DNA from: Liolophura sinensis
Taxonomy: Eukaryota > Mollusca > Polyplacophora > Chitonida > Chitonidae
DNA length: 64,000 nt
NCBI RefSeq assembly: GCF_032854445.1
Contig: NC_088304.1
Span: 3,100,001-3,164,000, forward strand
Reading direction: 5' to 3'
Shown here: piece after piece, positions 5,720 to 30,779 of the stretch
Layout: the number at the start of each line of letters is the position of its first letter
How positions within the stretch are numbered: position 1 is the first letter of the stretch
Translations under genes and position numbers: made by a program
The notes under the pieces: model-generated
Seen by the model: only the letters and a program-made list of their open reading frames with translations
The model's database searches: none
Told to the model about the DNA's origin: nothing

Positions 5720-5828
5720 CCGCCAGTTTTGTATATAATTTGTCACTGCTGTTGTCGCTTGTGAAAGAAATTAAAAAATGATGACAGAAATTGAGCAAAA
5801 TCTGAAACACATCTGTTATTTATTATTT

Positions 5829-8545: not shown

Positions 8546-8810
8546 GAAATCTACTTCCATTTAAAATGTTAACTTTCTTTTATTTACTGTATTTCACCTA
8601 AAGATTGGTTGGTAAAAATGCTCATTTAACAAAAGCACATGGAGGCCTAAGAACGATAGTTTTGTAGCCAACACTTAAGTTTCTCTGATAAGAAGTTAAT
8701 TAAACTGTACAAAAACCTAGAAGTGACCCTAGAAAGTGGATGAATCAGTCGGAATCAAGTGAAATATGTCACTTAAAAAGTAATAAAATTGAGATGAAAT
8801 ACAGTATTTA

Positions 8811-8935
8811 TTTGATTGGGTGTTGACATTGTACTCAAGAATATTACACTTATAATACAATGATGGCCAGCATTATGGTGGCAGGAAAGAGTAATTATCT
8901 CCGGAAGAAACCCACAACCATCCTCATGTTGCTGG
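8811..8935 (-). mobile_element. Degenerate SINE fragment
   Basis: The tail half of the same SINE family as 7547-7782, with many substitutions. It is in LRWD1 intron 1. Confidence 0.65.
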
Positions 8936-9122
8936 CAATATGATTGCTATTTATTCCTTGTAGATACCTGTGCATATTGCTTATTGGCTTGACAGCTGCA
9001 AGAATCAGTAGTGAGGTTGAGATATGAACAGCTCTGAATGTGTATCACATTGTTAAGAACCACCAGAGACAGAGTGATAGATTTCTGTGTGTTTGTGTCT
9101 TGTACAGGTTCTCCATTACAAC

Positions 9123-12100
9123 ATGTCTTCTGATGAACTGACAGAGAAAGAGCTCCTGAAGCTGGCGGGAAAATCGTCCTTAAAGGCTATTCAGACTTTG
9201 GAGTAAGTACTGACCTGAGTATGACATTAAATTACTGAGCAATTAAATCAAACTGTATGAAAACAGATATACACCTATCATTGGATGTTGAGAATGAGCT
9301 CACAGGAAGATGACCACTGAGCTTGAACGATGCTGAAGGCCTGCACGTGGAAGTGCTACATCTGGTATGAGTAGTAAGGTGACATTGATTTTATTTTGTA
9401 TTTTACCAATGAGGCGATGATCAATGGTCCAAAAAGGAATGAAGATAAAACTGAAAATCATGTATATTTTCTCAACTGTTTGGGACACAACTCTGTGTTC
9501 AGTCTTTGAACAAAAAAGACGCTTTGATAGCGAATCAGTGTTGTTGGTAAATGTTCATATCTGCCAAAGAAGATTTTAGTTTTGCTACTGTCAGCCATTT
9601 ATCAAACTTCAGACTCCTGAAAATGAAACCTGGAGACAAATTGCGTGCTTGCCTTGAAAGTAGCTGAAGATATTAACTCCACGTGACGTTGGGGAGGAAG
9701 CTATTCAGCCCGCATGCGCTCACATGCAGTCAATTGCGCTATTCTAATGTGAAAAACAGAACAATGAAAGCCGAAGTAGGTCAAATTATTTGTGAGGACC
9801 TATTTGGTACAGACAAAAGAAGCTTGCTATGTGTCATGTTTGATTTCATATGTCTGCTTCCAAAAGTTGCTTTCTTAAATCTGATCAGCCGCAGAGGGTC
9901 GTGAAAGTTTTCCGTAAAAGGGCGATAACCTATAACGCAAACAGGTTGCTTCGCAGAACTTTGGACATGGTCACATTGAGTTAATGTAAAATTTTGAATA
10001 TTTCTTTCAAAAAAAAAAAAAACCAAATTCAATAGATATAACCAGTTATTGAGTTTTTTATTCAGTAGACAGAACGATTACTGACTTGTCCAGCTCACTT
10101 ATGTGAACTCCCCATATCCATTAAACGACAGCTATAATTGGTGTCGGACTCAGTAGTACTGTAGGCAGTGGATTTCCCATCAGCTCACCATGAACTAACA
10201 CCCCCTTAAAGTCTGGCTCCTAAGGGCTTTTTCCCCCACCCCTACTATTTTAATTGTTTGGTAAGTGCTTTTTAGTCGTGTATGTTTTGTTGTGTATGAC
10301 TTGTTCAGATCAGTCACCTGTTGACATCATGGGAAGTTTGTAACTTGAATACTTTGCTCCTCTTAATGCCCTGGATCCGAGTTCCCTGAACAGTCAAGCA
10401 TTGACTAAAAGATGTAGCGTGCAAACCTTGACAGTGTGGTGATAGGCCGGGATTTGGGTCTGTGGTCATTAGCTCATAGACCACTGTTGTTATAGTCTTT
10501 CAGGGCAGGATTTGCACAGCATTGATGTGGAACTCTTCAACAAGCTGACCTCTCTGACTGAACTTGACCTCAGCAACAACCAGCTCACAGACCTACCAAG
10601 GGAGCTAACTCTTCCCAAGCTGACTTCTCTGGACCTCGCAGAAAACGAGCTGAGTTCTGTGGATTTTGTCACACAGTTTCCTCGTTTAAAGTCGCTTTAT
10701 CTGAAGAACAACAAACAGTTAAAGGTAAGAGTCCTGTCCAATAATGTAAATGCAGATGATAACATAGGAGTCAGTATGTGGGAAGATCTGGCAGCAATCT
10801 GAGGATGGTAATGGGTTTCACCAGGTTTCCTCCCACAATAATGTAAATGAAGATGATAACATAGGAGTCAGTATGTGGGAAGATCTGGCAGCAATCTGAG
10901 GATGGTAATGGGTTTCACCAGGTTTCCTCCCACAATAATGTAAATGAAGATGATAACATAGGAGTCAGTATGTGGGAAGATCTGGCAGCAATCTGAGGAT
11001 GGTAATGGGTTTCACCAGGTTTCCTCCCACAATAATGTAAATGAAGATGATAACATAGGAGTCAGTATGTGGGAAGATCTGGCAGCAATCTGAGGATGGT
11101 AATGGGTTTCACCAGGTTTCCTCCCACAAAAATGTAAATGCAGATGATAACATAGGAGTCAGTACATGGGAAGATCTTGCAGCAATCTGAGGATGGTAAT
11201 GGGTTTCACTGGGTTTCCTCCCACAATAATGTAAATGCAGATGATAACATAGGAGTCAAAATCAATAGTTCCTCTCTGGCAGTACATGGGAAAATCTGCC
11301 AGCAATCTGAGGATGGTCGTGGGTTTCGCCCTCGCTCTGCCCGGTTCCCTCTTCCCAAAGTGCTGGCCACAATCATGTAAGGGAAATATTCTTGAGTACG
11401 GCGTAAGACACCAATCAAATAAATAAATAGATCAAAATTAATAGTCCCACAGGAGCTTTTTTCTACTTGTAGTCTGATCTGGTCACTCAACACATGCCGT
11501 AAGACTAAATGTCTTCTGAATGTTCTGATCACAGATGAAAAATACGTAGAAAATAGAAGGGCTATTAAGAAACATAAAATATGTCTAAAAATGAAAATTT
11601 TATTCTCATTTTTTACCATATCTTTCTGTACTTTTCTTAAAACCATTTTCTTTGTATTAGGGTGCCTTTTCACGTATCCTTTAGCGTTTATGTTGTTTTT
11701 CAGTCAGCAGATTTGTACATCGCGGCCTATGTCTGTCCGTCTCTGGTCACTGGAGATCTTGTCTCCAGAAGCGTGGTGTCACTGCAGAATGTTGTGGAGT
11801 CCATCAGTGAAAATTTGAAATTTAAGGTTTGAAAAGAAGCCTTTTTCTGTAGGAATTAATGAGAAATGCTCGGTATTAAAATCTTGTTGAACCATCTTAG
11901 AAAATGTATAATTATTTTCTTTGTGTGAATGTTCATAAAACTACAAGGGTACTCAATATGCTTCAAGAAGCCCAGCTGGTCTGTTCATTTGCAGATTTTA
12001 CTTGCTCAGATGATGTTTACTGGCAGAACATGCAGAGTAATCCTCTCAGCCTGTTGTTACTTGCTGCAAATCAATCTTTTCAACTTCTGAAGCACTTTCT

Positions 12101-15100
12101 TCATTGGAATTTATGCGTATAATTATTGTAAAATTTACACTATAAATGATTTCTTTGTCACTGAAAATAGAAGCTTTATAAAAGTGTGCTAATTGTTTCT
12201 TGTTGCAGCATAATTTTCTCAGAATGTTTCAAAAAACAGGTGACAAGTTTTTGAAAAGATTGTAGAATTAGTGTAATTAGTTTTACTCTTGTGTAAACTT
12301 AGATGATCAAAAAGAATGTTTTGTTTCAGGTGCTGGGGGTGTGGGATGCCGTGTTCAAGGAGAGAGTCATAGGGAAGGCCTTTACAGATGAAGAGAAAGT
12401 TGAACTTTTGCACGAATTTAGAAAGGTTCTCCTCAAACAGAATTTCTGTGATGACAATACACTTTTTAAATTTTATAAATTTCTGGTAAGAAAAGTTCAC
12501 TGTCATTAGCTAAGTCATTTACTTTACCACCTTTTAATTCAAGAGTTGAAATTTTTTGATCCGTAACACAAGTATGAAAGTTCTTGAGTTATTTGCCTGT
12601 AGCCATTGGTTTATTCTGTGCACTCAAGATTCCTCTACCCATATTAGGGCTGGAAAGGTAAAACAATCATTCTCTCTGGTGACATCCAGAAAAATTCCGT
12701 CTGAAAGTTGTGGATAGTCGTGCGTCTCTCCCAAGGCTCTGCCCGGTTTCCTCCCACCAGAATATTGGTTGCTGTCATATAAGAGAAATATTTATCTGTA
12801 CCATGTAAAACACTAATGAAGTGAATAAATAAATAAGACAAACGTGAGTACAGTTATACACACACACCAGTACAATAACTCAGTAAAGGGACTCTGTGGC
12901 TCTCACTGACTCAGCGGTGTGATGGATTATTCGGCTGCAGCTTTAAGCGGCAATTTTTGCCAGGTACATGCTGAAGGTCAGTGGTTTATTCTGGACATTC
13001 TTGTTACCTGCATCCATAAACCTGACTTCCTTCATATAAGTGAAAACTCCCAGGGCATAGCACCAATCAATCAATCAAGCAAGGTTATTATGTGATAAGT
13101 TCTCTCAGGTGTCTTTCATTGCATGGTGGTTTCCTTTAGTTTAGCCTCTGCTTGGTTTCCTCCAGCCTCTGCTTGATTACATTCAGAATCTAACTGGTTT
13201 CATCCAGATTTTGCTTGGATTTGAGGCTGGATTTCACCTGGGCTTGGTTTCCTCCAGCCTCTGCTTGATTACATTCAAAATCTACCTGGTTTCATCCAGA
13301 CTGTACTTGGATTTGAGCCTGGATTTCACCTGAGTGCTTGGTTTCCTCCAGACTCAGCTTGGTTTCCTCCTGACTTCACTTAATTTCGTTCAGACAGCTG
13401 GGTTTCTTTCAGACTCGGCTTAGTTTCCTCCAGACTCATTGTTGTTTTTTTCAGGCTCAGCTTGGTTTCCTCCAAAAAACTTTTTTTTTTTTGCCTGTAT
13501 TTTTCAGCTGAAATCCATGGCTCAGGAGGTGATCGGGAAAATTGGGGACGCAAACAGTAATGTTCAAGTACCAAAACGAGTGCGGAAACGAAAATTGGAG
13601 GCAATTCCAGAAGACAATATCCTGTCAGTTCCTGCTAAAGTTTCCAGAAATAAGAAGGAGAAAGATAACAAACAGAAGAAAATGTCAACAAAAAGGAAAG
13701 ACAAAGGTTTCACAGTCATCAAACCAAAGTCCAAGCCCATTCCAAGAGATTCATTTACACTGGTGTGTGATATCTGGAAATATTCTTGAGAATGGCGTAA
13801 AATACCATATTGGAGGTAGTGGAAGGGAAACATTTTTGTCTTGTTCGAGGTTTTGCGTGAACTGTCAAGAAAATGTGTCAAGATAGGATTTGTGTTGTCT
13901 AGGTGTTATTTAAGATTAGTAATGTGTTATTTCTGGGGAATTTCTGCTGCTGTTATTGATCAGGTAAAAAGAAGCCATGTAAGGTGTGACAATGGTAAAT
14001 GACCTTAAGTTTCGCACGTGAGTTACTGTCACATGCTCTGAGTTGGTGTCAAGATGACAGAAGACAATGATTAGCCCACCCCCGCCCGTTCCATTACCCT
14101 GCACGGCACTTGACAGCTCTGGCTGCTAATCCTCGCTGTATGTGGTCAAGTCACTGACAGTGAGGTGTGCAGGTCTCCCGACTGTAAATATACACATGAA
14201 TGATACTGAAGAAAGTATTAGAACAGGTGATGTCTATTACAAACTTTTAAATTCCGAACACTGTTTGAAAGCATGACCATGCCAAACAAGGAATGTACAT
14301 GCACAATGTACGCTGCAGGCATACCGATTATTTGAACTAGACCTACGTGGAAGTCACCTCACACCATTATCTGGTGAACGGGTGTCTGCTGAGAGCCCTC
14401 ATCATGCAACCAATATGTGTACAAATGTATTTCAGCTAAAAACGAATTTCACTGAGAAATATATCATCCATGTGTCCATGTAGCCATGTAATTCCAGTTT
14501 AGTATGTCAGTATACACGCACATTTTGTTGGTGTTACAATTGGAACTGTCCTCCTATTGCAGAAGGTTTACCTTCCCTGCGTTTTGAAATCGAATACACC
14601 CCATTAACACAGAAAACACCGTGTCAGAAAACTACCAAATTAACCTGGGCCCCTTTTCGGTAGCACTGTGTGTGAGTCCGGCATATCGGGAGTCAGACAG
14701 GATATGTGTATGTTGTTGAGATGTTAGACATTTGCACAACACTGACTGGCCATATATCAAAATAAAGTGCATGTTTTATTATTACCAGTATGTAGATATG
14801 CTCAGGTGTCGCCTTTCTTCGGCCAAAATCACGCAATCAACAAGTATAATAGACATGTGGATATTTGGAGCCCTGTGATTGTTGCCAAGTTGTCGCTTTA
14901 AACGCAGTTTGAGTGATCATCTGCTGGTAACTGGCAAGTAAGGATTAGTCTGGTACTAAGTTCTATTATAGCTTTAACATAAAAAGCTCTGCATGCATAT
15001 TGACGGATATCTGACATGCCACTCCACATGTGCAAAGGTACTGGGTGGTCATGCTTACATTCATCAATCTCCAGAGAGTTTTCTCCCAAATTCCACTTTC

Positions 15101-18100
15101 GTCATAAAATGGTGATCATAAAACAATCAAGGTGCACCTTTTGTGAAGTAAACCTGTATGTACTAAATTCATTATGATTAAAACTGAGGAAAACATGAAC
15201 TGTTGGTTGCAGGAGCATAGACTGACTGCTCAGTGAAGTGTGAGCTTGATCATTACATTCGGGGACTGTCCATGTAATCCCCTGACCAAAGCCGATGCTC
15301 TCGTGCGGCCACCAGTCAGTAAGAACCACAGTCAACGCAGGGAATCCTGGGATACACTTTCCAAGTCCCAGTGCGAAACTTTAGGTCATTTACCGTAAAT
15401 GTGTACGACTTAATCAGCAATGATGCCAAGGCATTTTGTCAAAAATATAATCATGCTGATTTTTTCCATGCTCCTTGAAGGTGTTGTCAATTTGGTATGA
15501 GCTGTAGTCAGCTCTCTCATGGATCTGTTTATTTTCCTCAAGCTTTAGTTGGTTTCCTTCATGCTCTTGTCTGTTTCTTCTAAGCCTTGGTCATTTTCCC
15601 TTCAAGTTCTGAACTGTTTCCTCTAAGCTCAGGTCGTTTACCTCCACTCCGAGAATTCAGGTTTCATATTTCATCACAGTCACGATGAAGCCTTGTGTTA
15701 ATAAGTCTGGCCCAGAACATCCATAAATACCTGTATACATAAGTCACTGAATTGTTTTGTAGCCGGCAGTCCCAGATTTCAGCCCTCTCCATTTTGTGCG
15801 CTGTCACTCGTACAACAACAACGCTAATGATCAGGAGACAAAAGTGTGGCAGTGTGCTTTTGAGCCTGACACCAAAAATCCAGGTTTGTCTGATTGAACT
15901 TTTACGCCCTTTTTCTCATCGATTTTATTGCCTGTTCTGTTCTGTTTTTTTTTTTTTTTTTTGTCCTTTTCCTCTCAGGTTTTAAGAACAACAAGTTGAG
16001 GTGCTGACCACGTTCATTCAAGTGCCTCTGGTTTATCTTAAGGAATCTTAAGAAAGAAGATGTTTTTTCAGCCATTTTAAATATATCAGAAGTGTAGTAT
16101 CTGAGTCTGTGTGTGAATGATTAGCTTTTTGTTTGCAGGAAAACAGACTGACACAGTGGGCACATGTGGAGGGCTGATTGTTTGTTTACTGGACTGTAAA
16201 ACTGGCAAAGTGATGAGGCGCTACAAAGATGACTGTGATGATGAGGTAGGCAATGTTACAAAGTGATGAGGCACACCACGGTGATTGTGATGATAAGGTA
16301 GACAACGTTATGCAGTGATAAGGCAATATACAGATGAGTGATGATGAGATAGGCACTGTTACAGAGTGATGAGATGTTATATAAAAGAGTGATAATGAGG
16401 TAGGAAATGTTTCAAAGTGATGAGATGTTATATAGAAGAGTGATGATGAGATAGGCACTGTTACAAAGTGATGAGATGTTATATAGAAGAGTGATGATGA
16501 GATAGGCACTGTTACAAAGTGATGAGATGTTATATAGAAGAGTGATGGTGAGGTAGGCAATGTTACAAAGTGATGAGATGTTATATAGAAGAGTGATGAT
16601 GAGGTAGGAAATGGTTCAAAGTGATGAGATGTTATATAGAAGAGTGATGATGAGATAGGCACTGTTACAAAGTGATGAGATGTTATATAGAAGAGTGATG
16701 ATGAGATAGGCACTGTTACAAAGTGATGAGATGTTATATAGAAGAGTGATGATGAGATAGGTACTGTTACAAAGTGATGAGATGTTATATAGAAGAGTGA
16801 TGGTGAGGTAGGCACTGTTACAAAGTGATGAGATGTTATATAGAAGAGTGATGATGAGATAGGCAATGTTATAAAGGGATGAGATGTTATATAGAAGAGT
16901 GATGGTGAGGTAAGCAATGTTACAAAGTGATGAGATGTTATATAGAAGAGTGATGATGAGATAGGCAATGTTACAAAGTGCTGAGATGTTATATAGAAGA
17001 GTGATGGTGAAGTAGGCAATGTTACAAAGTGATGAGATGTTATATAGAAGAGTGATGATGAGGTAGGCAATGTTACAAAGTGATGAGATGTTATATAGAA
17101 GAGTGATGATGAAGTAGGCAATGTTACAAAGTGATAAGACTTGTGATTGTGTTTTAAAACAGAGGTAAAGATCATGGTAATACAGAATTTGGGTTCATCC
17201 TTTGTGACAGTTGTGTCAGGAAGTTTTTACAGACAGATAGTTTTATAGTTGATTGCTCTCCCAGATAGACATTTTTGCAGTTTTGTGAAGCAATGAAAAT
17301 TGCCTTTCAGCATAGTTTCATATTTATTAAATATATATTTTCTTTGTAGACCATAGATTTCATCTATAGTTGCTGTACATTTATGAAGTTCTGCAGAAGA
17401 AAGTTTGTGTCAGGGGGTATACATGTATAGTGGAGTGTGGAAAACTAAGACCAGATATCTGTTAAGTGTCTCATATTTTTTTTAAAATATTTTTTGTCTG
17501 AAAATGAAGAATATTAATATGGGCCAGTCCATCTTATAACTGCTGGAGATATTATCTGATTTTATTAAAATGCCTTCATGGCGCGTTAAAGTAAGTTGAA
17601 TTGCAGCTTAAACTGTTTCACTGAGTTTAGTCCACCTGCTGTTCTCCACACAGTCCTTCTACTGCCTGGCCTGGACGATGGTTACTATGGAAACCAAGGA
17701 TGCCACCTTCCCAACAACTTTATTGGCAGTTGCAGGTATGGCATGCAGTGGTGGTTTTATATTTGGGCATAATCGCATTGACCTAAATGACTTGTCATCA
17801 AGATGTGACAACAAACCTGTCAAGCAGAAAGAAGAAAAACTGGTGTTTGACATGGTAATATTATTATATGCAAGTATCTCCTTGATTAGTAAATAAGTAA
17901 ATAAGTACAGAAGGTAAGCTGATTGGAAAACAACCCCTAATAACATGTGAATTGATAAATATTAGCCAGATATTCTGTTTCTGCTGAATCTAGTCCCCGA
18001 CTTTGTGTTCAGATAGTCATCTTGTTCTCTGGTACTACTGCTTGTGAAAAATATGGTAAATTGTCACATTATTCAGGGATGCGAATTTTCGGCGAATTTG

Positions 18101-21100
18101 TGGATTTCCAACTTTTGCCAGCGAAAAAATATGACTCTTGGACTTGGTTTAAATTTGTAATAAAAATTTTTGTAGGATGTTACTTTTTTAACTGCCTGCA
18201 AAACAGCCTGAGTAGACAGAAGGGGGCAAAGGCCTTGATCCAGTAACGTTTTACTACCTCCTTCCACGTAAGGCTTCTTTACCTGGATAGAGGGATATGT
18301 ATATCCCTCTATATCACCAGTAACAAGACTCTATTGTGGGCGTTACTGAGTAGCCTTGAAATGATGGTGAAAGCTTTTACAGCTATAATTTATGTACTTT
18401 GGCATATATGCTTTGCAGCAACTTGCTACGGTAGCTACACATGCACATCCGAATGGCAAATTTTCTCAACAAGAAAGGCGAAAAACCATGCTCGTTTGAG
18501 AGATAAAGAGGCAGGGATTAAAAATTGCTTCAAGTGGGCTTTGCTGGAAAAGACAGCATCGCTCACTATAGGACTTTGCTGGAAAAGACTGCATCGCTCA
18601 CTATTGGGCTTTGCTGGAAAAGCGCTGGAAGTGGACATGAGAAAAGTTGATGTGCCTGGTAAAGTCACGTGCACTGTCTGTTCTGATCTTATCTGATCAA
18701 TTACGGGAGCAGGGGAGCAAGGACTATCGTGGAAGACATGCACACACGAAAACACATAAGTTAATGGACCAAATGCAAGTTGTTTTGTTGGCAATGCTTT
18801 TTGGTTTGTCTTTGGTTGGTTTTTTATCTTACTTCTCAAACATTGGGTGAACTAAATAATGTGTTGCAACAACGACATCATCAAAGTAAGTTATTTCAAA
18901 ATGGATACTGCATTGAACTTTTTTTTTTAGATAAAATTTTTATAATCTGTTTTTCAGAATGAAATTTCACTGGCTTTCTTCACACAATGCACCAAAGTGA
19001 ACAACAAGATATTCCCTCTGAAATGCTGTTTCAGCGCATCCTACCATAATCAAAACGACCAGCGTGAGCGGTGCTCGTTCCAGTGGGAATATAAAATATT
19101 TTCAGACTTTTTTTCCATTCACCATTCTCATGCCTAATTATTGCTGCCATTTCAGGAGAAGGGGAGGTAATCAAGCTGATGCACCCCAGCCAGCTGGTTG
19201 TCTACGCAGCTCTGAAAGGACACAACAAAGCCATACAGAGCCTTCTGTTTCATCCTGAGAAACCTACTCATCTCTTCTGTAAGTCATTTAGTCTCTAGCT
19301 CTGTAAGTCATTTAGTCTCTGATTGTGTAAGTCATTTAGTCTCTAGCTCTGTAAGTCATTTAGTCTCTGATTGTGTAAGTCATTTAGTCTCTAGCTCTGT
19401 AAGTCATTTAGTCTCTGATTGTGTAAGTCATTTAGTCTCTGATTGTGTAAGTCATTTGGTCTCTGATTCTGTAAGTCATTTAGTCTCTGATTGTGTAAGT
19501 CATTTAGTCTCTGATTGTGTAAGTCATTTAGTCTCTGATTGTGTAAGTCATTTAGTCTCTGGCTCTGTAAGTCATTTAGTCTCTGGCTCTGTAAGTCATT
19601 TAGTCTCTGATTGTGTAAGTCATTTAGTCTCTAGCTCTGTAAGTCATTTAGTCTCTGATTGTGTAAGTCATTTAGTCTCTGGCTCTGTAAGGCATTCAGT
19701 CTCTGGCTCTGTAAGTCATTTAGTCTCTGATTGTGTAAGTCATTTAGTCTCTGATTGTGTAAGTCATTTAGTCTCTAGCTCTGTAAGTCATTTAGTCTCT
19801 GATTGTGTAAGTCATTTAGTCTCTAGCTCTGTAAGTCATTTAGTCTCTGATTGTGTAAGTCATTTAGTCTCTAGCTCTGTAAGTCATTTAGTCTCTGATT
19901 GTGTAAGTCATTTAGTCTCTGGCTCTAAGTCATTTAGTCTCTGCCTCTGTAAGTCATTTAGTCTCTGGCTCTGTAAGTCATTTAGTCTCTGATTGTGTAA
20001 GTCATTTAGTCTCTGATTGTGTAAGTCATTTAGTCTCTAGCTCTGTAAGTCATTTAGTCTCTGGCTCTAAGTCATTTAGTCTCTGCCTCTGTAAGTCATT
20101 TAGTCTCTGGCTCTGTAAGTCATTTAGTCTCTGATTGTGTAAGTCATTTAGTCTCTAGCTCTGTAAGTCATTTAGTCTCTGGCTCTAAGTCATTTAGTCT
20201 CTGATTGTGTAAGTCATTTGGTCTCTGATTCTGTAAGTCATTTAGTCTCTAGCTCTGTAAGTCATTTAGTCTCTGATTGTGTAAGTCATTTGGTCTCTGA
20301 TTGTGTAAGTCATTTAGTCTCTGATTGTGTAAGTCATTTGGTCTCTGATTCTGTAGGTCATTTAGTCTCTAGCTCTGTAAGTCATTTAGTCTCTGATTGT
20401 GTAAGTCATTTGGTCTCTGATTCTGTAAGTCATTTAGTCTCTAGCTCTGTAAGGCATTTAGTCTCTGATTGTGTAAGTCATTTGGTCTCTGATTCTGTAG
20501 GTCATTTAGTCTCTAGCTCTGTAAGGCATTTAGTCTCTGATTGTGTAAGTCATTTGGTCTCTGATTCTGTAGGTCATTTAGTCTCTAGCTCTGTAAGTCA
20601 TTTAGTCTCTGGCTCTGTAAATCATTTACATGTAGTCTCTCATTCAGACAAGGAATTGTCAAGAATCTTACCAGTGTGTTATTCTCAGGGTTTAGCAGCA
20701 GAAACTTTCTGAAAAATATAAAAGCATTTTTTTTACACTTTTGTTTTTTTTATAATATATAATACAAAATAGTTTTTCCTCTGATCCCGTTGGAGCAAGC
20801 TTCATAAGTGATTGTTGATTGGTGGACGACCAGACCCCTGGCATGAAGCTGCAGCAGGTCTTGAATCAGAAATATTACCTCATTGGTAATCTTGTCAATT
20901 TTGGTATCTTTAGTGATGCAGGACAGCAGCTGTGATCACAGTGGGGCAAACCTGCTAGATTTGGCAATGTCAAGGTCAGATGTACTGAATGCATCAACCT
21001 TTCTGCATGTTTTAAAAGTGTTTATTTAAGCATATTCAAAAGGCGTTATTCTGTGTAGACCGATAAAATTATACTTTTCGTGAAGCCCTGAAATTGGCCA

Positions 21101-24100
21101 ATCCATCCAAAGTAGTTTTGTCTCCAAAATCTAATTATAAATATGCATAAATTGCACTGAAAGTTGATCTTTCATATGCAAAAATGTAAAGGAATTCATC
21201 GTGTTAAGATACGTTCACCTTAATACATTGACAAATATTGACTTACATATTAGTATTCATATATAATATGACGAATATTTAATGGTTTCAGGTGGCTCTG
21301 ATGACAATAGGATAACCTTGTGGGATATTGGAGTACCTGACCCTGTGAATTATTCCACAAAATACAGGTAAGATACAGGTAAAATAAGATACAGGTGAAA
21401 TAAGAAACAGGTAAAGTACAGGTTTCTAAAGAGGCAAGTAGACTTTCTGTGTGTGAATTCTGTAATTCTTCTCATTTTTAGGACAGGAAAGTTGTCTTTC
21501 AGTTTTTCAGAGAAGTGAAGATATGTGCATTTTTACGTTGGATGGACTAACATTCTAATAAAAAATAAAACTGAGTACCCTAAATGACTTAAAAATTCAA
21601 CCACAAAATAGATTATTTGGAGGCAAATAAAATGTCATTAGATATTACTTCTGGTACTAAAATTAAAGTTTTCCCACTAGGATATCATCCTACCTTCCAA
21701 ACACCTCTCAAAGCACCTCTCTAAAATCATTGAAACTCCAAGAATATGAAAAAATGAGCAAATTAGTCATGGACGAAGTTTTAGGTTGTGTAGGGTATTC
21801 ATGTCCTAATTACATGCGTAATGACTGAAATGAGCTGATTAGGTGTCATGAAATTTAGGTACAATTATGGTAATGATGTATAATAAGATATTTACTTTAC
21901 TGTATTCTTAGGCTACTAGCCTTTGTATTCCGTCATGGAAGGCAGAGTTTATTTTTGAAAAGACTATGCACATTTACAAAAGGACAAGATAGAAGAGGAA
22001 GATAAATGCTTATGTTAATGGAACTTGAGTGAGTGAGTTAGTGCTTGGGGTTTAATGTCATACTTACCAATTTTTCAGTCATATGACGACAAAGGAAACC
22101 TTAGAGTGCATGTAATGTGCCTCCTTGTTGCAGGACGGATTTCCATCGCTCTTTTATCTAGTACTGCTTCACTGAGACGCCTTACTGAAGGCAAGTAAGC
22201 TGCACCGCCCAAGCCATTTTATACTGATACGGGTCAGTCCGTTGTTGCACTATCATGCTGAACTACAAGCGAGGAAGTTGCAACTTCCTCTTTTAAGGTC
22301 TTAGGTGTGACTCAATCCAGGATTGATCCTGGATCTACGGTTCCGGAATTAATGGAACTCGATGGGAAAAATTTTGATCCTGGGGTAGAAGATTTATGTT
22401 CCCTGTTTGTTCAACTTTCTTTGCAAGCTCAAGTGCAATTTATCTTCATTAATTTTTAGATAATTAATATTTTGGTGGCTTTGCCAACATCTGGACTTCC
22501 CAGGAAATATAGTTTTTTCAGTCCAGTTAGTGAAATGCCCTCAAAATGTGCTTCAAACAACACCAGGTGAACTGGCTAGAAGGTTGACGAAATAGGCTAA
22601 GTTTGTGTACCTTAATTCCTCAACCTTTTTGCATGTTATAGAGCAGCATTCAGTACAAGTTATACGTGGTTTTAATTTGATTTTGGAGACGAAACTGCAT
22701 TGGTTAGATTCGCCAATTTCAGGACTTGACAGAAAGTATAATTTATCACTCCACACAGAATAGTGCTCTCAGAATTTGCTTGAATAAACACGTAGTATAT
22801 GTAGTTGAATTGTTGTACTTATAAATATCTCTGTTTATATCCTGTCTGGTAATCCGTCTCCCTCCAGTCAGCTTCTGCGTCTGCAGTGCCCAGGCACTGG
22901 AGTTCTGAACATGGTGTACAGCTCCCGTCTCAACTGGCTTGTGGTCGGCTGTGAGGACGGATGTTACGGATGGAATCTCAGCAGTTACAAAAACACAAAA
23001 CGGTATGTGCTTTTCAAGAAACACATTTTTGGTATTAAGATCTCAAACGTCTCCACAAAGCCATCCTTGAAAAATTCATCATTGGGTGTAACCTGACGGA
23101 TCAGAAAAAGTTGAAGGATTAGTGTCCCGATTGTGCTACTGATTCTAATTATAAAGATTATAACCTGTTTAAACTGTTACTCTGAGGGCCTCTGAGCAAT
23201 GTAATAATGGCTTTAAATCCACCAAAAACAATAGATTTACAGCCCTAGCTGACCTCCAGCCAGCCACCCAGTACTGCTCAGCGGGTGACATCATAGATGG
23301 CTAAACCAAGCCTAGCTGGCCTAAATAACCTGGGGATTCGCGTTAACACGATGTCATTTTCGAGATGGATTCTGTATACACAGAGGCAAATATACTACAT
23401 TATCAATTTGAACTTAAAGTGGACGACATTAAAGTTTCGATTTGTGACATTCACATCTGTGGGCAGACTACAGATTCCGTGTTTTCAGACGTTGAATTTG
23501 ATCTTTGTCCAGGCATTTCCAACCACACTGACAATAAGGATTGGTAAACTATAGCCTTACCCTGTGTTACACATTTCACGTTTATCTTAAGATTTAATAT
23601 TTATTTACTATTCTCTCCCACTCGCTCACAATAAATATCATTCTATTTCCCAAGGAATTCTAAATTCCTACCTAGGGCCTACATGCGATGACAACTACCG
23701 GTGTACATGTTGTTGTCGTCGGCATTCTGAATAGCCTGTGCCCATAGGGGCCTATAGTAGTGTACAATATAAATACACGCGCGATGTGGACATCAGCGTT
23801 AGTGTACAGAGATTTACTATCTATCATAGGGGCCTATGTAGTCGTGTACAATATAAATACACGCACGATGTGGACATCAGCGCTAGTGTACAGAGATTTA
23901 CTATCTATCATAGGGGCCTATAGTAGTGTACAATATAAATACACGCGCGATGTGGACGTCAGTGTTAGTGTACAGAGATTTACTATCTATCATGGGGCCT
24001 ATAGTAGTGTACAATATAAATACACGTATGATGTGGACATCAGCGTTAGTGTACAGAGATTTACTATCTATCATAGGGGCCTATGTAGTCGTGTACAATA

Positions 24101-27100
24101 TAAATACACACTCCATGTGGACATCAGTGTTAGTGTGCAGAGATTTACTATCTATCATGGGGGCCTATAGTAGTGTACAATATAAATACATGTGTGATGT
24201 GGACATCAGTGTTAGTGTACAGAGATTTACTATCTATCAAAGGGGCCTCTAGTCATGTACAATATAAATACACACTCCATGTGGACATCAGTGTTAGTGT
24301 ACAGAGATTTACTATCTATCGTAGGGGCCTATAGTCATGTACAATATAAATACACGCACGATGTGGACATCATTGTTAGTGTACAGAGATTTACTATCTA
24401 TCGTAGGGGCCTATAGTCGTGTACAATATAAATACACGCACGATGTGGACATCAGTGTTAGTGTACAGAGATCTACTATCTATCGTATGTACTTTTTTCC
24501 GGTATTTTTTACACCCAATTTAACAATGTGTACATCAGTAGGTAATTATGAATAAATAGTTAATCTGGACACTAATCCTTCAAAAAATTTTGAAGAAATT
24601 ATCATTGTGAGAAAATAAAAAAAAAAATTCTGCCTTAATCCCAGTAAAGACCTAGTAGTGGCCAATTGTGGAGGTTCATTCAGGTGATGTATAAGGAACA
24701 TATTAATAATGCTTCAGTTTAATGACCCGTACGTGGGGAAGGTCTGGCAGCAACCTATGGATGGTCGTGGGTTTCCCCCAGGCTCTGCCTGGTTTCCTCT
24801 CACCATAATGCTGGCCGCCGTTGCATAAGTGAAATATTCTTGAGTACGGCGTAAAACACCAATCAAATATATAAATAAATAGATCAGTTTAATAACAATT
24901 TGTTTTCATCACTTAACTATTTTGCCCTAAAAATTCTTCCTCCTATTATAGTGTGTTTTAGTGGCAAAGAAATGCCATGAAATATTACATTTGGTTTTTT
25001 AACATTTCCAGTAGAATGTCATCCAACCTACCAGACTAACTTTTCTCAGATTGATAGAACTCCCACAATCAGACAAAAATGAGCACATTTTGATGAAATT
25101 TTAAGTAAAATACAGTAGTCATAATTGGAACAATTGTCCTAGGTGCTGATGTCTGACTGTTTGTCTGCCTGGTTTCTGTTTATTGTAAACACATCTGTCT
25201 TTTCTTCCCACAGTGAGCCTACTCTACAGTTCTGCCTACCTGACAGCGATAACAGAAACAGTCAGGTTGATGGATTAACCATGCTGCCTAATGACATTAT
25301 AGGTGGGTGACTTTCAGTGATTATCTGACTGTCCGTAAGCAAAAATTATTAAGTACAGATTCTTGTACGTTTGTAAGATTTGGTGAACATTGTTACCTTG
25401 GCTTATAAAGGAAGAGTGAAGTTTGACCTACTTTCTAGGGTCAGAGGTCATTTAGGGCTCTTCAGCTATAGTAAACGCTCACTGAAACGTATGGGCAAGA
25501 ATTATTGTTTATTTAATCAGTACCTACTGATGTGGAGAAATTCTATTTTGGCATGACGCCAAAGTTTGATCGACCTTGCGAAGTCCACATCAGCTCGAAT
25601 TTATTCAGTAGTCTATTTATTATACATCAAACAATTTGAGTAGGGAATAAACTTCACTCGCTGAAAATGAAAATTAAGTTTAAGATAGTCAAATTTGTAC
25701 TAATTTTTTAATGAATGGTGCAAGAATATGTACAGGGAGCAGTATGATGGAGTGACCTGTTGGTGATGTCCCGATGTTAACGTCCAGTTTGTAACGTCCC
25801 GTTGTTAACGTCCTGTTTGTAACGTCCCGTTGTTGACGTCCTGTTTGTAACGTCCCGTTGTTAACGTCCTGTTTGTAACGTCCCGTTGTTGACGTCCTGT
25901 TTGTAACGTCCCGATGTTAACGTCCAGTTTGTAACGTCCAGTTGTTGACGTCCTGTTTGTAACGTCCCGTTGTTGACGTCCTGTTTGTAACGTCCCGTTG
26001 TTGACGTCCTGTTTGTAACGTCCCGTTGTTAACGTCCTGTTTGTAACGTCCCGTTGTTAACGTCCTGTTTGTAACGTCCCGTTGTTAACGTCCTGTTTGT
26101 AACGTCCCGTTGTTAATGCTGACATGCAGCATAAACGTTGATAATGGTGATGTGAATTATAAAAGATATGCAGCACAATTGCCACAACGTTGATAGATAC
26201 GCAGATGTGGAAGGTGTTTAATAATGATTAGGTGGTTAACACTGCTACATGTTGAACTGAAGAATTTCTAAAAAAAAATTTCAAGCATTTAGTTGACTCA
26301 TTAGAAATGATTTGACAGCATTGTGAATAGATCTTAATTTCAATACATCCATAGCAACCAAATGTGTTGGTCAGTCTGTGATCTGCTTGTGGCGTTTGGA
26401 GGATTATGTGACAGACAAGCCAGGGAAGAGTCCAATCAGAGCTGTGGATCCACTATGTGGACTGAGATACCCTCTAACCGAAACTGCTTACATCAACATA
26501 TCAGCAGCACAAGGTAAGTCCACAGTTCGAGGATCATGTTTTGTGGATTGGGGGAACATCGGGCAGATAGGCCTGGGAAGAGTTCAGTGTCTGGCTGTAG
26601 ATCTGCTGTGTAGAATCAGGTACCCTCTAACCAAAACTGCTTACATCAACATATCAGCTACACAAGGTAAGGTCACTGTCTGGGATTATATTTTGGAGAT
26701 TGGAGGATCATTTGACGAACAAGCCAGGGAGGATTTCATTCAGAGCTGTATATCCAGTATGGACTGAGATACTCTCTAACCAAAACTACTTCATATATGT
26801 GTTATGAGTGCATGTACACCAATAATTGTGACGTAATAAAGGAAAGAACAAAGGAGTTCACAACTTCGGACTGTCTTGTTACAAGTAGGAAGGAGTTTTA
26901 GTGGTTCCCTGTTATGTTTGCGATATGGAGGACCGTGTGATTAATGGAGGACCGTGTGATTAATGGAGGACCGTGTGATTAATGGAGGACCGTGTGATTA
27001 ATGCAGGACCGTGTGATTAATGCAGGACCGTGTGATTAATGGAGGACCGTGTGATTAATGGAGGACCGTGTGATTAATGCAGGACCGTGTGATTAATGGA

Positions 27101-30100
27101 GGACCGTGTGATTAATGGAGGACTGTGTGATTAATGCAGGACCGTGTGATTAATGGAGGACCGTGTGATTAATGGAGGACCGTGTGATTAATGCAGGACC
27201 GTGTGATTAATGGAGGACTGTGATTAATGCAGGACCGTGTGATTAATGCAGGACCGTGTGATTAATGGCGGACCGTGTGATTAATGGAGGACCGTGTGAT
27301 TAATGCAGGACCGTGTGATTAATGGAGGACCGTGTGATTAATGCAGGACCGTGTGATTAATGCAGGACCGTGTGATTAATGCAGGACCGTGTGATTAATG
27401 CAGGACCGTGTGATTAATGCAGGACCGTGTGATTAATGGAGGACCGTGTGATTAATGGAGGACCGTGTGATTAATGCAGGACCGTGTGATTAATGCAGGA
27501 CCGTGTGATTAATGCAGGACCGTGTGATTAATGCAGGACCGTGTGATTAATGCAGGACCGTGTGATTAATGGAGGACCGTGTGATTAATGGCCCATAGAG
27601 TGGATCAACAGCCCTCAGTGGACACTTCCATGAGCTGTTCCTCACATGATCGTCCAAGCTGAAACACACTAGCTTCACAAGGTAAATCTAGAGTTTAGGG
27701 ATATGATAAGTTGATTAATGGGGACCATCCCAAATGCCTGGCAGTAGCTTGGCACCATATTTGGATGGATCCAACACATTGGATGTCCCACCAACCCTTC
27801 CCCTGACAAAGTTACTTTTCATTCCATTCCTGGTGAAAGCAGTTGTGACGAATGACATCACAGAAAGTTTGAATATTTGCAACCAATGTGTCGGTCATCC
27901 AGGTGACCTATTTGCAACAGTACTGATTATTATTGGTTAATTGCGTGTTCTTGATAGACAGTTCGGAAAGGTCTATCGACGTCAGACATTCTCTTCCCAG
28001 CTCATCATTATGACATCACATAAAAAACGGACCGATGTTAGAATAAAAACCAGTACATTGTAACATTGTGGACATTGCACCACAATCAGTTTTGATGTAA
28101 CAGGGACAAGAGGTTTGTTTCACACAGGGCTAGCTCTCAGGATTGTGTTCTCATTAGAGACGACTGGCCTTTGACCAATAAGGTTGCGCCTTTGAATCAG
28201 ATTTGTTCGGCTTCATCTGAAAGGCGAAAGGGTTGTCAGGTATTAGTTGAAAAGGTGACAGTTTCCAGTATTTGTGTAGTACGGAATGTAAGTCCAGTTG
28301 GGCCTGAGGTAGTTAGCGTGGGGCAATGACCCAGGAGCCTCTCGCCAATGTGGTTGCTGTGAGTTCAAATCCAACTCATTCCAGCTCGCTCCCCTGCCGT
28401 AGGTGGGAGGGCGACCAGAGGATGGTCTTGGGTTTTCCTCGGGCTCTGCCTTGTTTCCTCCCACCATAATGCTGGCCTCGTATGAGTGAAATATTCTTGA
28501 GCACGGCGTAAAACACCAATCAAATAAGTAAAATCAAGTAAACAAATAAAAGTCAAATGAAATAAGTGAATAAATAATTTACATCACACAAGATGTAATG
28601 TATAATGTTGAATGTATTTTAGGTATTTTGGTTGCGGGAGATGACCATGGCTCAGTGTATATGTATAATTTGCGGGAAATGGCGAAAAAGATGAGTTTCA
28701 GAAAAGGTGTGGCGTCGTCTTCAAGGGTGAGTCTGGTTAATTAACATCAATGGCTCAGGCACCCAAAAATTTTTTTTAGTAGAAATGCCCTGGGAATGGT
28801 GATCCACCTGTAGAAGTGAAAGCTGTGGTTGAAGCCATTATAAATGCTCATTGAGATACTTGTGCGTGCATGTAGGTTTCAAATAAAAAACAATAAATGC
28901 AGTTTGCATATATGTACTATTATAAAAGTATATTTCGTGTGTTGAAAATCAGATTTGTGAACAACCACAAATATATAAAACAAAAAGGGCTACCCTGCTA
29001 TTGTGAAAGTCCCGTGAGTGGACAATCCTGATTCAGCTGATGTTATTGGCCAATCTTCTTGCCCAAGTTAATGGGAGTTCCTCCCTAACTTCAAATATGT
29101 CTCAAGTTTTCTGTTTCCAGAGAGCAGTACCTTAGAAAGGCCAAGCAATCTAAACCCTTTTTCTGCATTTTTAAATGATTACTGTCCACATTTTAGCTTG
29201 TGAACAAAAGATTATAACTAACTCAAACAGTATGTAACAGGGAGGGCCTCTGAGAAGTGTAATGATCCACCTAAAACAGATTCAAATTTTCTACCCTAGC
29301 CACTCTCCAGTTAACCCCTCAGTGCCTCACCTGTGAAAACGATAGTAACAACTTAGCCTGAATTGAAAATGTTGGCGCAGAAAACAAGGATGATGTTTAT
29401 AATCTTATCAGATGAATATCACAAACTGGATCAACACTGTCAAATTGTGCATTCTGAAAAGTTGTGTGAGTAGCCATTGTGTCAGTGGCTTATCAGTTCC
29501 ATTGGATCTGAATACTCAGAAAATTGAAAATTGCGGCAATATGATTTGGGCCAAAGTCAAACATCAGCTGAGAAATGGTGTTATACACATGGCTTTCTTG
29601 TATACGTAGGCCTCTTGCTTCAAATTCCTCTTCTCCCACGATAATGGTGGCTGCGGTCGTATGCGTGAAATATTGTTGAATACAGAATAAAACACCAATC
29701 AAATAAATAAATAAATATTATTCTATAAACTGACCATGATACTTGTCATACGAACATTCAAACAGCAAACAGGTGCTCTTTTTTTTTAACTAACACAATG
29801 ATGACATCCTCAAGTTGTGGTATAGTTGCTGATTGTGCTACTTATCACATTTTCTTTTTGACACCATTTCAGGAGTTGCTGTGGCCAGAAGTGTCTACGA
29901 GTAAAAACTGTCCAATAACAGATCTGAAAGATGATGTAAGTTTACAACAGTGTTCAGGCATTTGTCTGTCTTACTGTGTTATTTCTTTTAGATGCGGACA
30001 GAAAGTAAGGAATCTCTTGATGCACTATAATAAAGATGAATTTTCAAATTCTTATTTTGAATTTTCTGCAAGAGAGTTGTGTTGAATGATTCTGAGATTG

Positions 30101-30779
30101 ATTCTGTCAACAGTTGAATGTAATTTGTTGTAAATAAATATCCAGTGCAATAATTCTGTTTAGTAACTGAATTAGACCCTTGATGATTGATTCATTTGAG
30201 GTGTTGGTCTTGACTTGATTGACAGGTGCTTGACCAATGAGGTTGCATGTTCAGATCCATATCTTGTTCTTCTAATTGATGCTGCAAGTCTGAAGATTTG
30301 TCAGATGTCTTAGAAACTGTGTTGGTTTATCCCCGACACTCCGATTTATCTCAACTCATAAACCTGCTTCATCAGACAAAAGATTTTTTATAAACATGTT
30401 TATATAATTACAGAAAGAAGTTGCATTTCGTGCACATATGGGTATATTTTCTTTGATTACATACCATGATGTGTAAACTTGCATAATTGCATACCATTGT
30501 GTACAAACTTGCACAATTGCATACTATTGTGTGCAAACTTGTATAAAGCTGTTTACTGCCTATTTTTCTATCTGGTTTACTCCTGTCTAAAGCAGACTTG
30601 TAAATGAAGCGATTTTGCAGGACTAGAACACTTTCACACATTAATAAATAGATATTAAATATCTGACTTGATGTATGTTTTTGCAGGTTGTGGTGAATAT
30701 GTGCAGTTTGAGGGCAGATGGGCAATTCCTTGTGTCCGGTACAGACAACAACATAGTTTGCATCTGGAGCCGAGACTAA
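9123..30779 (+). CDS. LRWD1: LRWD1 (ORCA), leucine-rich repeat and WD repeat protein, 16 coding exons, 664 aa
   Basis: Exons: 9123-9202, 10496-10724, 11704-11826, 12330-12485, 13508-13762, 15763-15883, 16139-16245, 17654-17735, 19156-19278, 21292-21367, 22868-23002, 25214-25302, 26355-26513, 28623-28726, 29873-29935, 30687-30779. All junctions are GT/AG and in phase, and the total is 1995 nt. Residues 20-103 are LRRs (LTELDLSNNQLTDLP), 104-196 are the helical region after the LRRs, 197-281 are a Lys/Arg-rich linker (KRVRKRKLEA, likely nuclear), and 282-664 are WD repeats. Diagnostic matches to human LRWD1 are PLHFVRCHS, TVGTCGG, NRITLWDIGVP and GCEDGCYGW. The length fits (human 647). LRWD1 binds ORC and repressive histone marks at heterochromatin. 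Exon 2 must start at 10496, because the nearby AG at 10502-10503 breaks the frame. Confidence 0.95.
10739..11265 (+). repeat. 97-bp minisatellite, SINE-derived, near a splice donor
   Basis: About 5.5 copies. The unit start 'ataatgtaaatg' recurs near 10741, 10838, 10935, 11032, 11129 and 11226. The array begins 14 bp after the exon 2 donor of LRWD1. The unit includes SINE body sequence (gggaagatctggcagcaa, ggtttcctcccac) plus about 40 bp of unrelated sequence. A SINE tail follows directly. Confidence 0.9.
11276..11430 (+). mobile_element. SINE 3' half
   Basis: Core and tail ending 'gtaagacaccaatcaaataa'. It is continuous with the 97-bp array on its left and is the probable source of it. Confidence 0.8.
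12680..12838 (+). mobile_element. SINE 3' half, diverged
   Basis: Recognisable by 'gctctgcccggtttcctccc' and the tail 'gtgaataaataaataag'. It is in an LRWD1 intron. Confidence 0.75.
12885..13080 (+). mobile_element. SINE-like element, second type
   Basis: It has a weak tRNA-like start (gactctgtggctctcactgac), then 'cctgcatccataaacctgac', and ends in 'caatcaatcaatcaa'. The tail is related to the main SINE family but the body is different. Confidence 0.5.
13130..13475. repeat. Degenerate tandem repeats around 'tttcctccagactc'
   Basis: Many imperfect copies of a roughly 20-45 bp unit containing 'cttggtttcctccag'. The array ends about 30 bp before the 13508 acceptor and is rich in pyrimidines there. 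A similar weak array lies at 15530-15650. Confidence 0.65.
16246..17140. repeat. 51-bp minisatellite seeded from an LRWD1 exon end and donor
   Basis: About 17 copies. Each contains a version of the end of exon 16139-16245 followed by the donor: aaagtgatgag, then gtgatgatgag, then gtaggcaatgtt. The first two copies keep the closest match to the exon. The long minus-strand open frame here is an artefact of the unit length, 17 codons. Confidence 0.92.
18288..18311. repeat. Short perfect inverted repeat
   Basis: TAGAGGGATAT and its reverse complement, separated by 2 nt, in an LRWD1 intron. A hairpin or old element end; no other support. Confidence 0.5.
18535..18640. repeat. 37-bp tandem triplet
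   Basis: Three copies of a unit containing 'ggctttgctggaaaag' and 'catcgctcactat', in the LRWD1 intron between 17735 and 19156. Confidence 0.8.
19279..20630 (+). repeat. 24-bp minisatellite made of splice-donor units
   Basis: About 56 copies of a unit starting gtaagtcatttagtctct. The first copy is the actual donor of exon 19156-19278 (the exon ends ctcttct, followed by gtaagt). Nearly every unit therefore carries a consensus 5' splice site. Variants are interspersed as higher-order patterns (agctct and gattgt types), with a few 21-bp units. Confidence 0.95.
20990..21235. repeat. Interspersed repeat, possible MITE family copy
   Basis: It shares blocks such as 'tgaagccctgaaattggcca' and 'ttcaacct..gcatgttt' with stretches at 22595-22790, 55762-55945 and 58862-58990, and with the right window edge. 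No coding content. Confidence 0.6.
21362..21422 (+). repeat. Short tandem donor duplications
   Basis: Four to five copies of 'acaggta' with spacers of about 11-17 bp start at the real donor of exon 21292-21367. This is a small, irregular version of the donor-seeded arrays seen elsewhere in the gene. Confidence 0.75.
22036..22345 (-). mobile_element. SINE-like element with 'ttaaaccccaag' tail
   Basis: On minus it ends gactgaaaaattggtaag, then 'cattaaaccccaagcac' and a gtgagtga-type end. This tail is shared with the element at 36156-36478, though the heads differ. The body contains a conserved-looking segment 'cctccttgttgcaggacgg'. Confidence 0.65.
22595..22790. repeat. Interspersed repeat, MITE-like family copy
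   Basis: Same family as 20990-21235. It shows 'attcctcaacctttttgcat', 'ccaatttcaggacttgac' and 'cacacagaatagtgctctc'. Confidence 0.55.
23116..24577 (-). mobile_element. Kolobok-like element with internal minisatellite
   Basis: The ends are AGGATTAGTGTCCcG and ctGGACACTAATCCT, the same inverted termini as at 40990-42395. The outer flanks TTGA and TCAA look like decayed TTAA. The left 500 bp align, in reverse, to the right end of the SRRD-intron copy, including a reading frame ending FDLCPGISNHTDNKDW. The region that would hold the THAP segment is replaced by an 83-bp tandem array. Confidence 0.75.
23740..24487. repeat. ~83-bp minisatellite inside the Kolobok-like element
   Basis: About nine copies, 82-85 bp each, containing 'tgtacaatataaatacac' and 'gagatttactatctatc'. 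Overlapping open frames here are repeat artefacts. Confidence 0.92.
24725..24884 (+). mobile_element. SINE 3' half
   Basis: Well-preserved core (ggtctggcagcaacctatgg) and tail (gagtacggcgtaaaacacc). It lies in an LRWD1 intron beside the Kolobok-like element. Confidence 0.85.
25767..26117. repeat. 28-bp minisatellite
   Basis: About 12 copies of a unit around 'gtaacgtcccgttgttaacg' with a gttaacg/gttgacg alternation, in the LRWD1 intron before exon 26355-26513. Confidence 0.95.
26543..26800 (+). pseudogene. Two tandem copies of an LRWD1 exon (decayed)
   Basis: Exon 26355-26513 is followed by a second copy (26543-26666, ending ACACAAG then gtaagg) and a partial third (about 26691-26800). The offset is 153 bp, or 51 codons, so the frame stays open through the intervening sequence. 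The second copy keeps RYPLTKTAYINISATQG against RYPLTETAYINISAAQG. It retains a good donor but has lost the exon's start and acceptor, so it is probably not spliced in. The WD fold would not accommodate it easily. Confidence 0.8.
26928..27590. repeat. 19-bp minisatellite inside a further exon copy
   Basis: About 35 copies of gaggaccgtgtgattaatg, with g/c variation (gag/cag). The flanks resemble the same LRWD1 exon: left 'gcgatatggagga' against exon 'gcgtttggagga', right 'gtggatcaac...gtggac' and 'cacaaggtaa'. The unit thus seems to have grown from a fourth exon copy. Confidence 0.9.
28296..28545 (+). mobile_element. Nearly full-length SINE
   Basis: It has the tRNA-like head (gttagcgtgg...gtgagttcaaatcc as B box), core and tail 'gcacggcgtaaaacaccaat'. 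It lies 80 bp upstream of the 28623 acceptor. Confidence 0.85.
29195..29360 (-). mobile_element. Fragment of the Kolobok-like family
   Basis: It aligns to the sub-terminal part of 23116-24577 ('gagggcctctgagaagtgta', 'ccctagcc..ctccag'). The 15-bp terminus is not preserved. Confidence 0.55.
29609..29718 (+). mobile_element. SINE tail fragment
   Basis: About 110 bp ending 'aaaacaccaatcaaataaat', with moderate divergence. Confidence 0.7.
30440..30545. repeat. ~33-bp tandem repeat
   Basis: About three copies with 'gcataccattgtgtacaaac', in the last LRWD1 intron. Confidence 0.75.

What the first reader, a model, noticed from the sequence alone, without database searches (positions are those of the whole stretch)
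10725..27590. Minisatellites repeatedly nucleate at 5' splice sites of LRWD1
Five introns of one gene have tandem arrays starting at or within about 15 bp of the exon's donor: 10739 (97 bp), 16246 (51 bp), 19279 (24 bp), 21362 (short) and 26543/26928 (exon copies plus 19 bp). A sixth case is in PHKG (58035, minus). In four of them the unit contains exon end and/or donor sequence. Chance seems unlikely. Possible causes are replication-transcription conflict, R-loop or U1-linked breakage, or slippage at exon-intron junctions.
Basis: seen in the sequence. Interest (0 to 1): 0.86.

Follow-up and report, generated by a model that had tools for sequence, protein, structure and literature searches.

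The report
Splice-site-spanning minisatellites in a chiton
In a chiton gene, several repeat arrays begin where an exon meets its intron because copies of the exon end and splice signal were multiplied into the intron; the same thing, called 'mirages', is known in amphioxus, and whether splice sites attract such repeats could not be tested here.

Summary
The observation largely holds. The gene is LRWD1 of the chiton Liolophura sinensis; 16 exons read from the window give the public protein exactly. In introns 7, 9, 10 and 13 the repeats carry the exon end and/or the donor. PHKG intron 7 has an array 12 bp inside the donor whose unit resembles the donor-proximal bases. Two items fail as donor cases: the 97-bp array of intron 2 grew inside a dispersed SINE-like element that lies 14 bp from the donor, and the 19-bp array starts 411 bp from the donor with no shown relation to the exon. 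Array starts are in excess at donors: 5 of 17 intronic arrays against about 1 expected when arrays are collapsed to their founding unit, P about 0.002, post hoc, one window. But minisatellites are as dense between the genes (28%) as in them (24% and 19%), and donor segments recur no more often than random intron segments (4 of 24 against 87 of 242). The kind is known: 'mirage' minisatellites of amphioxus. Most likely these are tandem duplications tolerated at the donor because the exon-proximal site stays in use. The genome-wide test could not be run.

The parts
9123..30779 (+). LRWD1-like gene, 16 coding exons
   Evidence: Exons joined and translated equal P0001 (664 aa, Liolophura sinensis) exactly
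10739..11258 (+). 97-bp array, intron 2, 14 bp past the donor; grown inside a dispersed SINE-like element
   Evidence: TRF; unit matches dispersed copies at 24729, 44366, 55317 and 56925 (best E per place 8e-11 to 6e-7)
11282..11443 (+). Rest of the dispersed element, directly after the 97-bp array
   Evidence: 80% identical to the copy at 24720-24895
16206..17139 (+). 51-bp array starting in the last 40 nt of exon 7 (copy zero) and crossing donor 16246
   Evidence: Exon tail against first copy: score 50, 0 of 500 shuffles reach it; TRF 16287-17139
19275..20628 (+). 24-bp array of intron 9; nearly all units carry the donor core TCT/TGT|GTAAGT
   Evidence: TRF; 54 donor-type cores found, 47 with the score of the real donor 19279, which is one of them
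21359..21415 (+). Short 11-16 bp array at donor 21368; exon end (A)TACAG/AACAG plus GT(A/G)A repeated
   Evidence: TRF; donors at 21368, 21379, 21395 and 21411, scores 11.0, 6.5, 7.1, 7.6
26387..26526 (+). End of exon 13 plus donor 26514: source of the duplicated segment
26541..26679 (+). Exon-13 copy 2 with donor-like site 26667; extension to it stays in frame (153 nt)
   Evidence: 77% identity, 105 bits against a best of 22.6 in 60 shuffled introns; frame test
26671..26798 (+). Exon-13 copy 3, donor end lost
   Evidence: 79% identity, 98 bits
26925..27590 (+). 19-bp array, 411 bp from donor 26514; no shown relation to the exon
   Evidence: TRF; distance; 192 of 500 shuffled units match the exon as well
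27663..27695 (+). Possible remnant of a further exon-13 copy with a donor-like site at 27682
   Evidence: 76% over 33 bp, 26.8 bits against a best of 22.6 in 60 shuffled introns
58049..58172 (-). PHKG exon whose donor (at 58048) lies beside the array
57130..58036 (-). 23-bp array in PHKG intron 7, beginning 12 bp after the donor in sense direction
   Evidence: TRF, distance; first 19 intron bases resemble the unit, 6 of 1000 shuffles as good

Best explanation
These are 'mirage'-type minisatellites in a minisatellite-rich stretch of a chiton genome. A local tandem duplication, by slippage or microhomology template switching (inferred), sometimes spans the exon end and its 5' splice site. The copies fall on the intron side. 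The original exon and its donor stay together and go on being used (the deposited protein model uses the first donor in every case), so the duplication is nearly neutral and can grow to dozens of copies, while duplications that alter the exon itself are removed by selection. One of the six cases (intron 2) is instead an array grown inside a dispersed SINE-like element. No donor-specific nucleating machinery is needed. Shown: anatomy, exon-to-intron direction, first-donor use in the deposited model. Inferred: duplication mechanism, neutrality.
For: Exon tails are copy zero of the repeats in introns 7 and 13. In the alignment of 11 LRWD1 proteins (8 molluscs with the chiton, 2 mammals, a tick) the exon-7 end is aligned in all, and at the exon-13 end the eight of the other ten that extend past it have no insertion (P0008 lacks the region, P0006 stops there), so the intron copies derive from the exon. 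P0001 uses the first donor at every LRWD1 array. Of eight downstream donors tested, seven give a premature stop or frameshift and one (26667) stays in frame. In the 51-bp array the two copies next to the exon are the least homogenised (0.75-0.76 to consensus against 0.90-0.98 for the other 15), as reported for mirage edges. Exon definition favours the donor nearest across the exon when introns are large (abstract of PMC9225289). Minisatellites are as dense between the genes as within them. The same structures are published in amphioxus with normal splicing.
Against: The seed model still shows about a five-fold excess at donors (P about 0.002), which tolerance alone does not explain, since intron interiors should tolerate duplications at least as well. 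The copies next to exon 7 are not closer to the exon than the inner ones (0.82 and 0.78 against 0.76-0.84), so no gradient of descent is seen. No transcript reads were examined, so first-donor use rests on the deposited protein model. No second genome was compared.
Confidence: 0.72

Rival explanations
1. 5' splice sites are true initiation points for tandem arrays in this genome: paused or R-loop-prone transcription or U1-bound nascent RNA at exon-intron junctions provokes breaks or fork switching that duplicate the junction.
For: 5 of 17 arrays touch donors against about 1 expected in the seed model. 4 of 24 donors lie in repeats where founding units cover 3.5% of the collapsed introns (exon-13 unit included), P 0.009; P 0.004 if that unit is left out of the coverage although its donor is among the four.
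Against: Post hoc, one window, one of the five arose in a dispersed element. Donor segments do not recur more often than random intron segments (z 3 or more: 4 of 24 against 87 of 242; z 5 or more: 3 of 24 against 73 of 242). Donor-like sites that are not real donors are in arrays at about the general rate (38 of 173 at 7 bits, 9 of 41 at 9 bits). Intergenic arrays are as dense. No direct evidence of breaks or R-loops.
Confidence: 0.13
2. Coincidence: many arrays in long introns, a few of which happen to start at donors, selected by a reader looking for pattern.
For: 31 arrays in 64 kb; several thresholds and gene boundaries were open to choice; the element-derived case looks like a coincidence of insertion.
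Against: P about 0.0006-0.01 under the null models tried at 15-20 bp, weaker at wider limits (for example 0.0145 for 5 of 17 within 50 bp in the seed model); in four cases the repeats are made of the junction itself.
Confidence: 0.1
3. The donor arrays are functional: dozens of U1-binding sites near the intron start tether U1 and protect the transcript from early polyadenylation, or tune splicing; the in-frame exon-13 copy is an alternative exon end.
For: 46 further donor cores with the score of the real one in intron 9; extension to donor 26667 is in frame and adds 51 aa.
Against: At 8 of 17 unit junctions of the 51-bp array the donor core is broken (GAG|AT). Eight of the other ten aligned proteins extend past this point and none has a 51-aa insertion. 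An open 153-nt extension is not improbable by chance. No expression data were read.
Confidence: 0.03
4. Assembly artefact.
For: Tandem arrays are a classical source of misassembly (general knowledge).
Against: The published assembly is PacBio HiFi (14x, mean read 8.3 kb) plus Omni-C (passages of PMC11068029), reads longer than every array here; copies differ from each other. That this window is that assembly is inferred from species and scaffold size.
Confidence: 0.02

Closest known systems
'Mirage' minisatellites of amphioxus (Adh3, globins BflGb6/BflGb9, troponin C; PGBD5 compared with them)
   [quoted passage not shown]).
   Different: Here in a chiton, with donor-side cases only shown in this window, up to 54 donor cores in one intron, and several cases in one gene. 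In amphioxus both boundaries are affected and somatic instability was detected at Adh3 (as stated in PMC3087553); the original paper, Canestro et al. 2002, is not held.
Intron gain by tandem duplication of AGGT-containing segments (Rogers 1989; potato RdRp, PeerJ 2016)
   Same: Tandem duplication across an exon-intron boundary multiplies splice signals (12 passages of PMC4974935).
   Different: No new intron is created here; the copies sit inside one intron of the deposited model.
Internal tandem repeats at exon-intron boundaries of human segmental-duplication genes
   Same: Minisatellite expansion at boundaries that can shift splicing (12 passages of PMC2812944).
   Different: There about half of the repeats lie in coding exons and many are used; here the deposited protein ignores them.
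Minisatellites grown from SINE-like elements (kind recalled, not looked up)
   Same: Explains the 97-bp array of intron 2: the unit is part of a dispersed element whose remainder follows.
   Different: Not made of donor sequence. No tRNA and no Rfam match at gathering score was found in the window, so the SINE label rests on dispersed copies and tail only.

Membership tests
Mirage minisatellite | Tandem repeats span an exon-intron boundary | tested here: met
   Introns 7, 9, 10, 13 of LRWD1, in intron 9 with only 3-4 exon bases; not met by intron 2; PHKG intron 7 only by a degenerate partial copy inside the intron
Mirage minisatellite | Many repeat units keep splice signals | tested here: met
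   54 donor-type cores in intron 9, four in intron 10, two strong ones at exon 13 and its first copy, 9 of 17 unit junctions with GT in the 51-bp array
Mirage minisatellite | Unit length 10-160 bp | tested here: met
   11-16, 24, 51 and 153 bp; amphioxus range
Mirage minisatellite | Edge copies escape homogenisation | tested here: met
   51-bp array only, exon-side edge only: first two copies 0.75-0.76 to consensus, other 15 copies 0.90-0.98; other arrays not tested
Mirage minisatellite | Regular splicing is undisturbed | tested here: inconclusive
   P0001 uses the first donor at each LRWD1 array; no transcript reads examined
Mirage minisatellite | Length polymorphism or somatic instability | not testable with these tools
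   Needs reads or other individuals
Intron gain by AGGT duplication | A new intron appears between the copies | tested here: not met
   All copies lie inside one intron of the deposited model; age of the introns not tested
SINE-derived minisatellite (intron 2) | Unit matches a dispersed element, whose remainder adjoins | tested here: met

The most novel reading that the evidence does not exclude
In chitons, and perhaps other animals with mirage-like repeats, 5' splice sites are genuine hotspots for founding tandem duplications (about five-fold over intron interior), so that splicing-linked events in the nascent transcript leave a mutational signature in the DNA and feed intron growth.
Probability: 0.13. 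Interest if true: 0.75.

Novelty: new member of a known kind. Interest (0 to 1): 0.36.

Why it matters
It extends the mirage type of minisatellite to a mollusc, with several cases in a single gene. In my searches of the open-licence PMC library the name turned up in this sense only for amphioxus, and boundary duplications of a related sort for human, potato and fission-yeast genes (long result lists were capped, and only nine papers were opened). It also gives a natural set of competing, nearly identical donors (54 donor-type cores in one intron) for testing how the spliceosome chooses the exon-proximal site. If a genome-wide excess exists, it would link splicing or transcription to local duplication.

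Tried and rejected
Genome-wide test: the same genome search was sent eight times and never answered; one stretch asked of the fetch from genomes did not complete too. Relatives' introns: the DNA collections offered are viral, prokaryotic, phage, plasmid and E. coli, and metagenome scans are capped at zero; I did not search them for chiton DNA. Only proteins were compared.

Relation of the 19-bp array to exon 13: not supported (192 of 500 shuffled units as good). A tRNA head for the dispersed element: none found by ARAGORN or by Rfam at gathering score. The acceptor of LRWD1 intron 7 scored z 3.7 with a low raw score of 23 and was not followed. The array at 13149-13492 ends 15 bp before the exon-5 acceptor and is the only acceptor-side case at TRF score 50 or more. 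An abalone gene with an intronic 27-bp minisatellite was looked at (four passages of PMC6905558); the passages do not say that it spans a boundary.

Rows dropped: TRF rows with score under 50 were left out of the 31 merged arrays, except that the start of one intergenic array (38019) was taken from a row of score 48. A rerun at score 30 (120 rows) gave near donors one more row for an array already counted, and near acceptors two low-scoring rows. One search used 40 shuffles for each probe and one search used 12 with a floor on the spread, so the two z scales differ slightly. The shuffle control ran 60 shuffles, although its printed label says 200.
Full report
Identity and gene model. Sixteen exons read from the window translate exactly to the deposited LRWD1-like protein of the chiton Liolophura sinensis (P0001, 664 aa). 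A second gene on the minus strand is the phosphorylase kinase gamma chain (P0121); ten exons match its carboxy-terminal 296 of 361 residues. That gives 24 introns, 28,693 bp. The published genome of this species (first named L. japonica, corrected to L. sinensis, PMC12441733, whole text) is a PacBio HiFi and Omni-C assembly (12 passages of PMC11068029). That the window comes from that assembly is my inference.

Observation. Thirty-one merged tandem arrays with TRF score of at least 50 lie in the window, 17 of them in the 24 introns. Coverage is 24% of LRWD1, 19% of the PHKG part, 28% of the intergenic stretch 30780-53538 and 2% of bases 1-9122. Arrays are therefore not a speciality of introns or donors here.

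Case by case. Intron 7: the last 40 nt of exon 7 and the donor are the zeroth copy of the 51-bp array; none of 500 shuffled exon tails aligns as well to the first copy. Intron 9: the 24-bp unit is the first 24 nt of the intron with its donor; 54 donor-type cores were found, the real one included, 47 of them with its score. Intron 10: exon end ACAG with GT(A/G)A, four sites in 43 bp. Intron 13: the exon end and donor are copied at 26541-26679, the exon end without the donor at 26671-26798, with a possible remnant at 27663-27695. PHKG intron 7: the array starts 12 bp past the donor, and the first 19 intron bases look like a shortened unit (6 of 1000 shuffles as good). Intron 2 is different: stretches of 49-73 bp of the 97-bp unit match a dispersed element at four other places in the window, and its remainder follows the array. 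The 19-bp array of intron 13 begins 411 bp from the donor and shows no relation to the exon.

Chance. With uniform placement of whole arrays, 4 of 17 start within 20 bp of a donor where 0.42 are expected (P 6e-4), and 1 of 17 ends within 20 bp of an acceptor. Arrays grow by insertion, so the founding unit is the fairer object. With arrays collapsed to one unit and units allowed to span the boundary, 0.9-1.0 are expected and 5 are seen (P 0.0015-0.0024 at limits of 15-20 bp, 0.0145 at 50 bp). Leaving out the element-derived array, 4 of 16 (P 0.007-0.010); adding the exon-13 duplication to that, 5 of 17 (P 0.0018-0.0028). Seen from the donors, 4 of 24 lie in repeats where founding units, the exon-13 unit included, cover 3.5% (P 0.009). 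A measure that does not use TRF: 4 of 24 donor-spanning 50-mers recur in their own intron at z 3 or more, against 1 of 24 acceptor-spanning ones. But 87 of 242 random intron 50-mers recur at z 3 and 73 at z 5, and 3 of 31 exon 50-mers at z 3, all in exons 7 and 13; grown arrays fill much of the introns. So donors are not more repeated than intron sequence in general; they are hit by founding events more often than their small length would predict. Donor-like sites that are not real donors lie in arrays at about the general rate (38 of 173 at 7 bits, 27 of 100 at 8, 9 of 41 at 9), so the motif by itself does not draw arrays. All of this is post hoc, in a window chosen for the pattern.

Direction and consequence. 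In an alignment of 11 LRWD1 proteins (8 molluscs with the chiton, 2 mammals, a tick) the exon-7 end is aligned in all; at the exon-13 end the eight other proteins that extend past it have no insertion, one lacks the region and one stops there. So the exon is the source and the intron holds the copies. Of eight downstream donors tested in LRWD1, seven would truncate or shift the protein; one, 26667 in exon-13 copy 2, stays in frame and would add 51 aa. The deposited protein uses the first donor at each LRWD1 array. The abstract of PMC9225289 reports that with large flanking introns the donor nearest across the exon is preferred, which fits.

Known kind. Passages of PMC3087553 describe 'mirages' in amphioxus: minisatellite-like tandem duplications of exon-intron boundaries with units of 10-72 and 150-160 bp, splice signals in many units, regular mRNAs, length instability, and edge copies excluded from homogenisation. 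[quoted passage not shown] PMC3902484 (one passage) adds troponin C and likens PGBD5 duplications to them. The original paper (Canestro et al. 2002) is not held. The chiton arrays meet the structural features; instability could not be tested. In the 51-bp array the two copies beside the exon are the least homogenised of 17, though they are no closer to the exon than the rest (0.82 and 0.78 against 0.76-0.84).

Mechanism. I hold that tandem duplications, common in this stretch of genome, are tolerated across donors because the exon-proximal donor stays in use, and then grow inside the intron (0.72). A true donor hotspot is possible (0.13) and is not excluded by the data. The duplication step itself (slippage, template switching, unequal exchange) is inferred; nothing here shows it.

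Limits. No second genome, no reads, no genome-wide count. Donor scores use recalled human-like weights, so they serve for comparison within this window only.

Noticed in passing
window 4283-5020, +: Open frames 4283-4774 and 4817-5020 match the Mutator-like transposase family PF20700 (E 1.9e-28 and 1.4e-06); frames on either side (3689-4111, 5099-5533) match nothing in Pfam at E up to 0.1.
   Followed up: partly
window 26514-26666, +: The stretch from the real exon-13 donor to the donor of its first copy is open and in frame (153 nt), so an alternative 51-aa extension of LRWD1 is possible.
   Followed up: partly
window 13149-13492, +: Array with units holding TTTCCTCCAG, resembling 3' splice sites, ends 15 bp before the exon-5 acceptor: a possible acceptor-side counterpart.
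   Followed up: no
window 51505-52049: The 43-bp array here also matches the dispersed SINE-like element on the minus strand, so that element seems to have founded at least two arrays in the window.
   Followed up: partly
window 24720-24895, 44366-44514, 55164-55316, 7545-7698 and others: Dispersed element with an A+T-rich CAATCAAATAAATAAATA-type tail, more than ten places in 64 kb at E up to 1e-5.
   Followed up: partly
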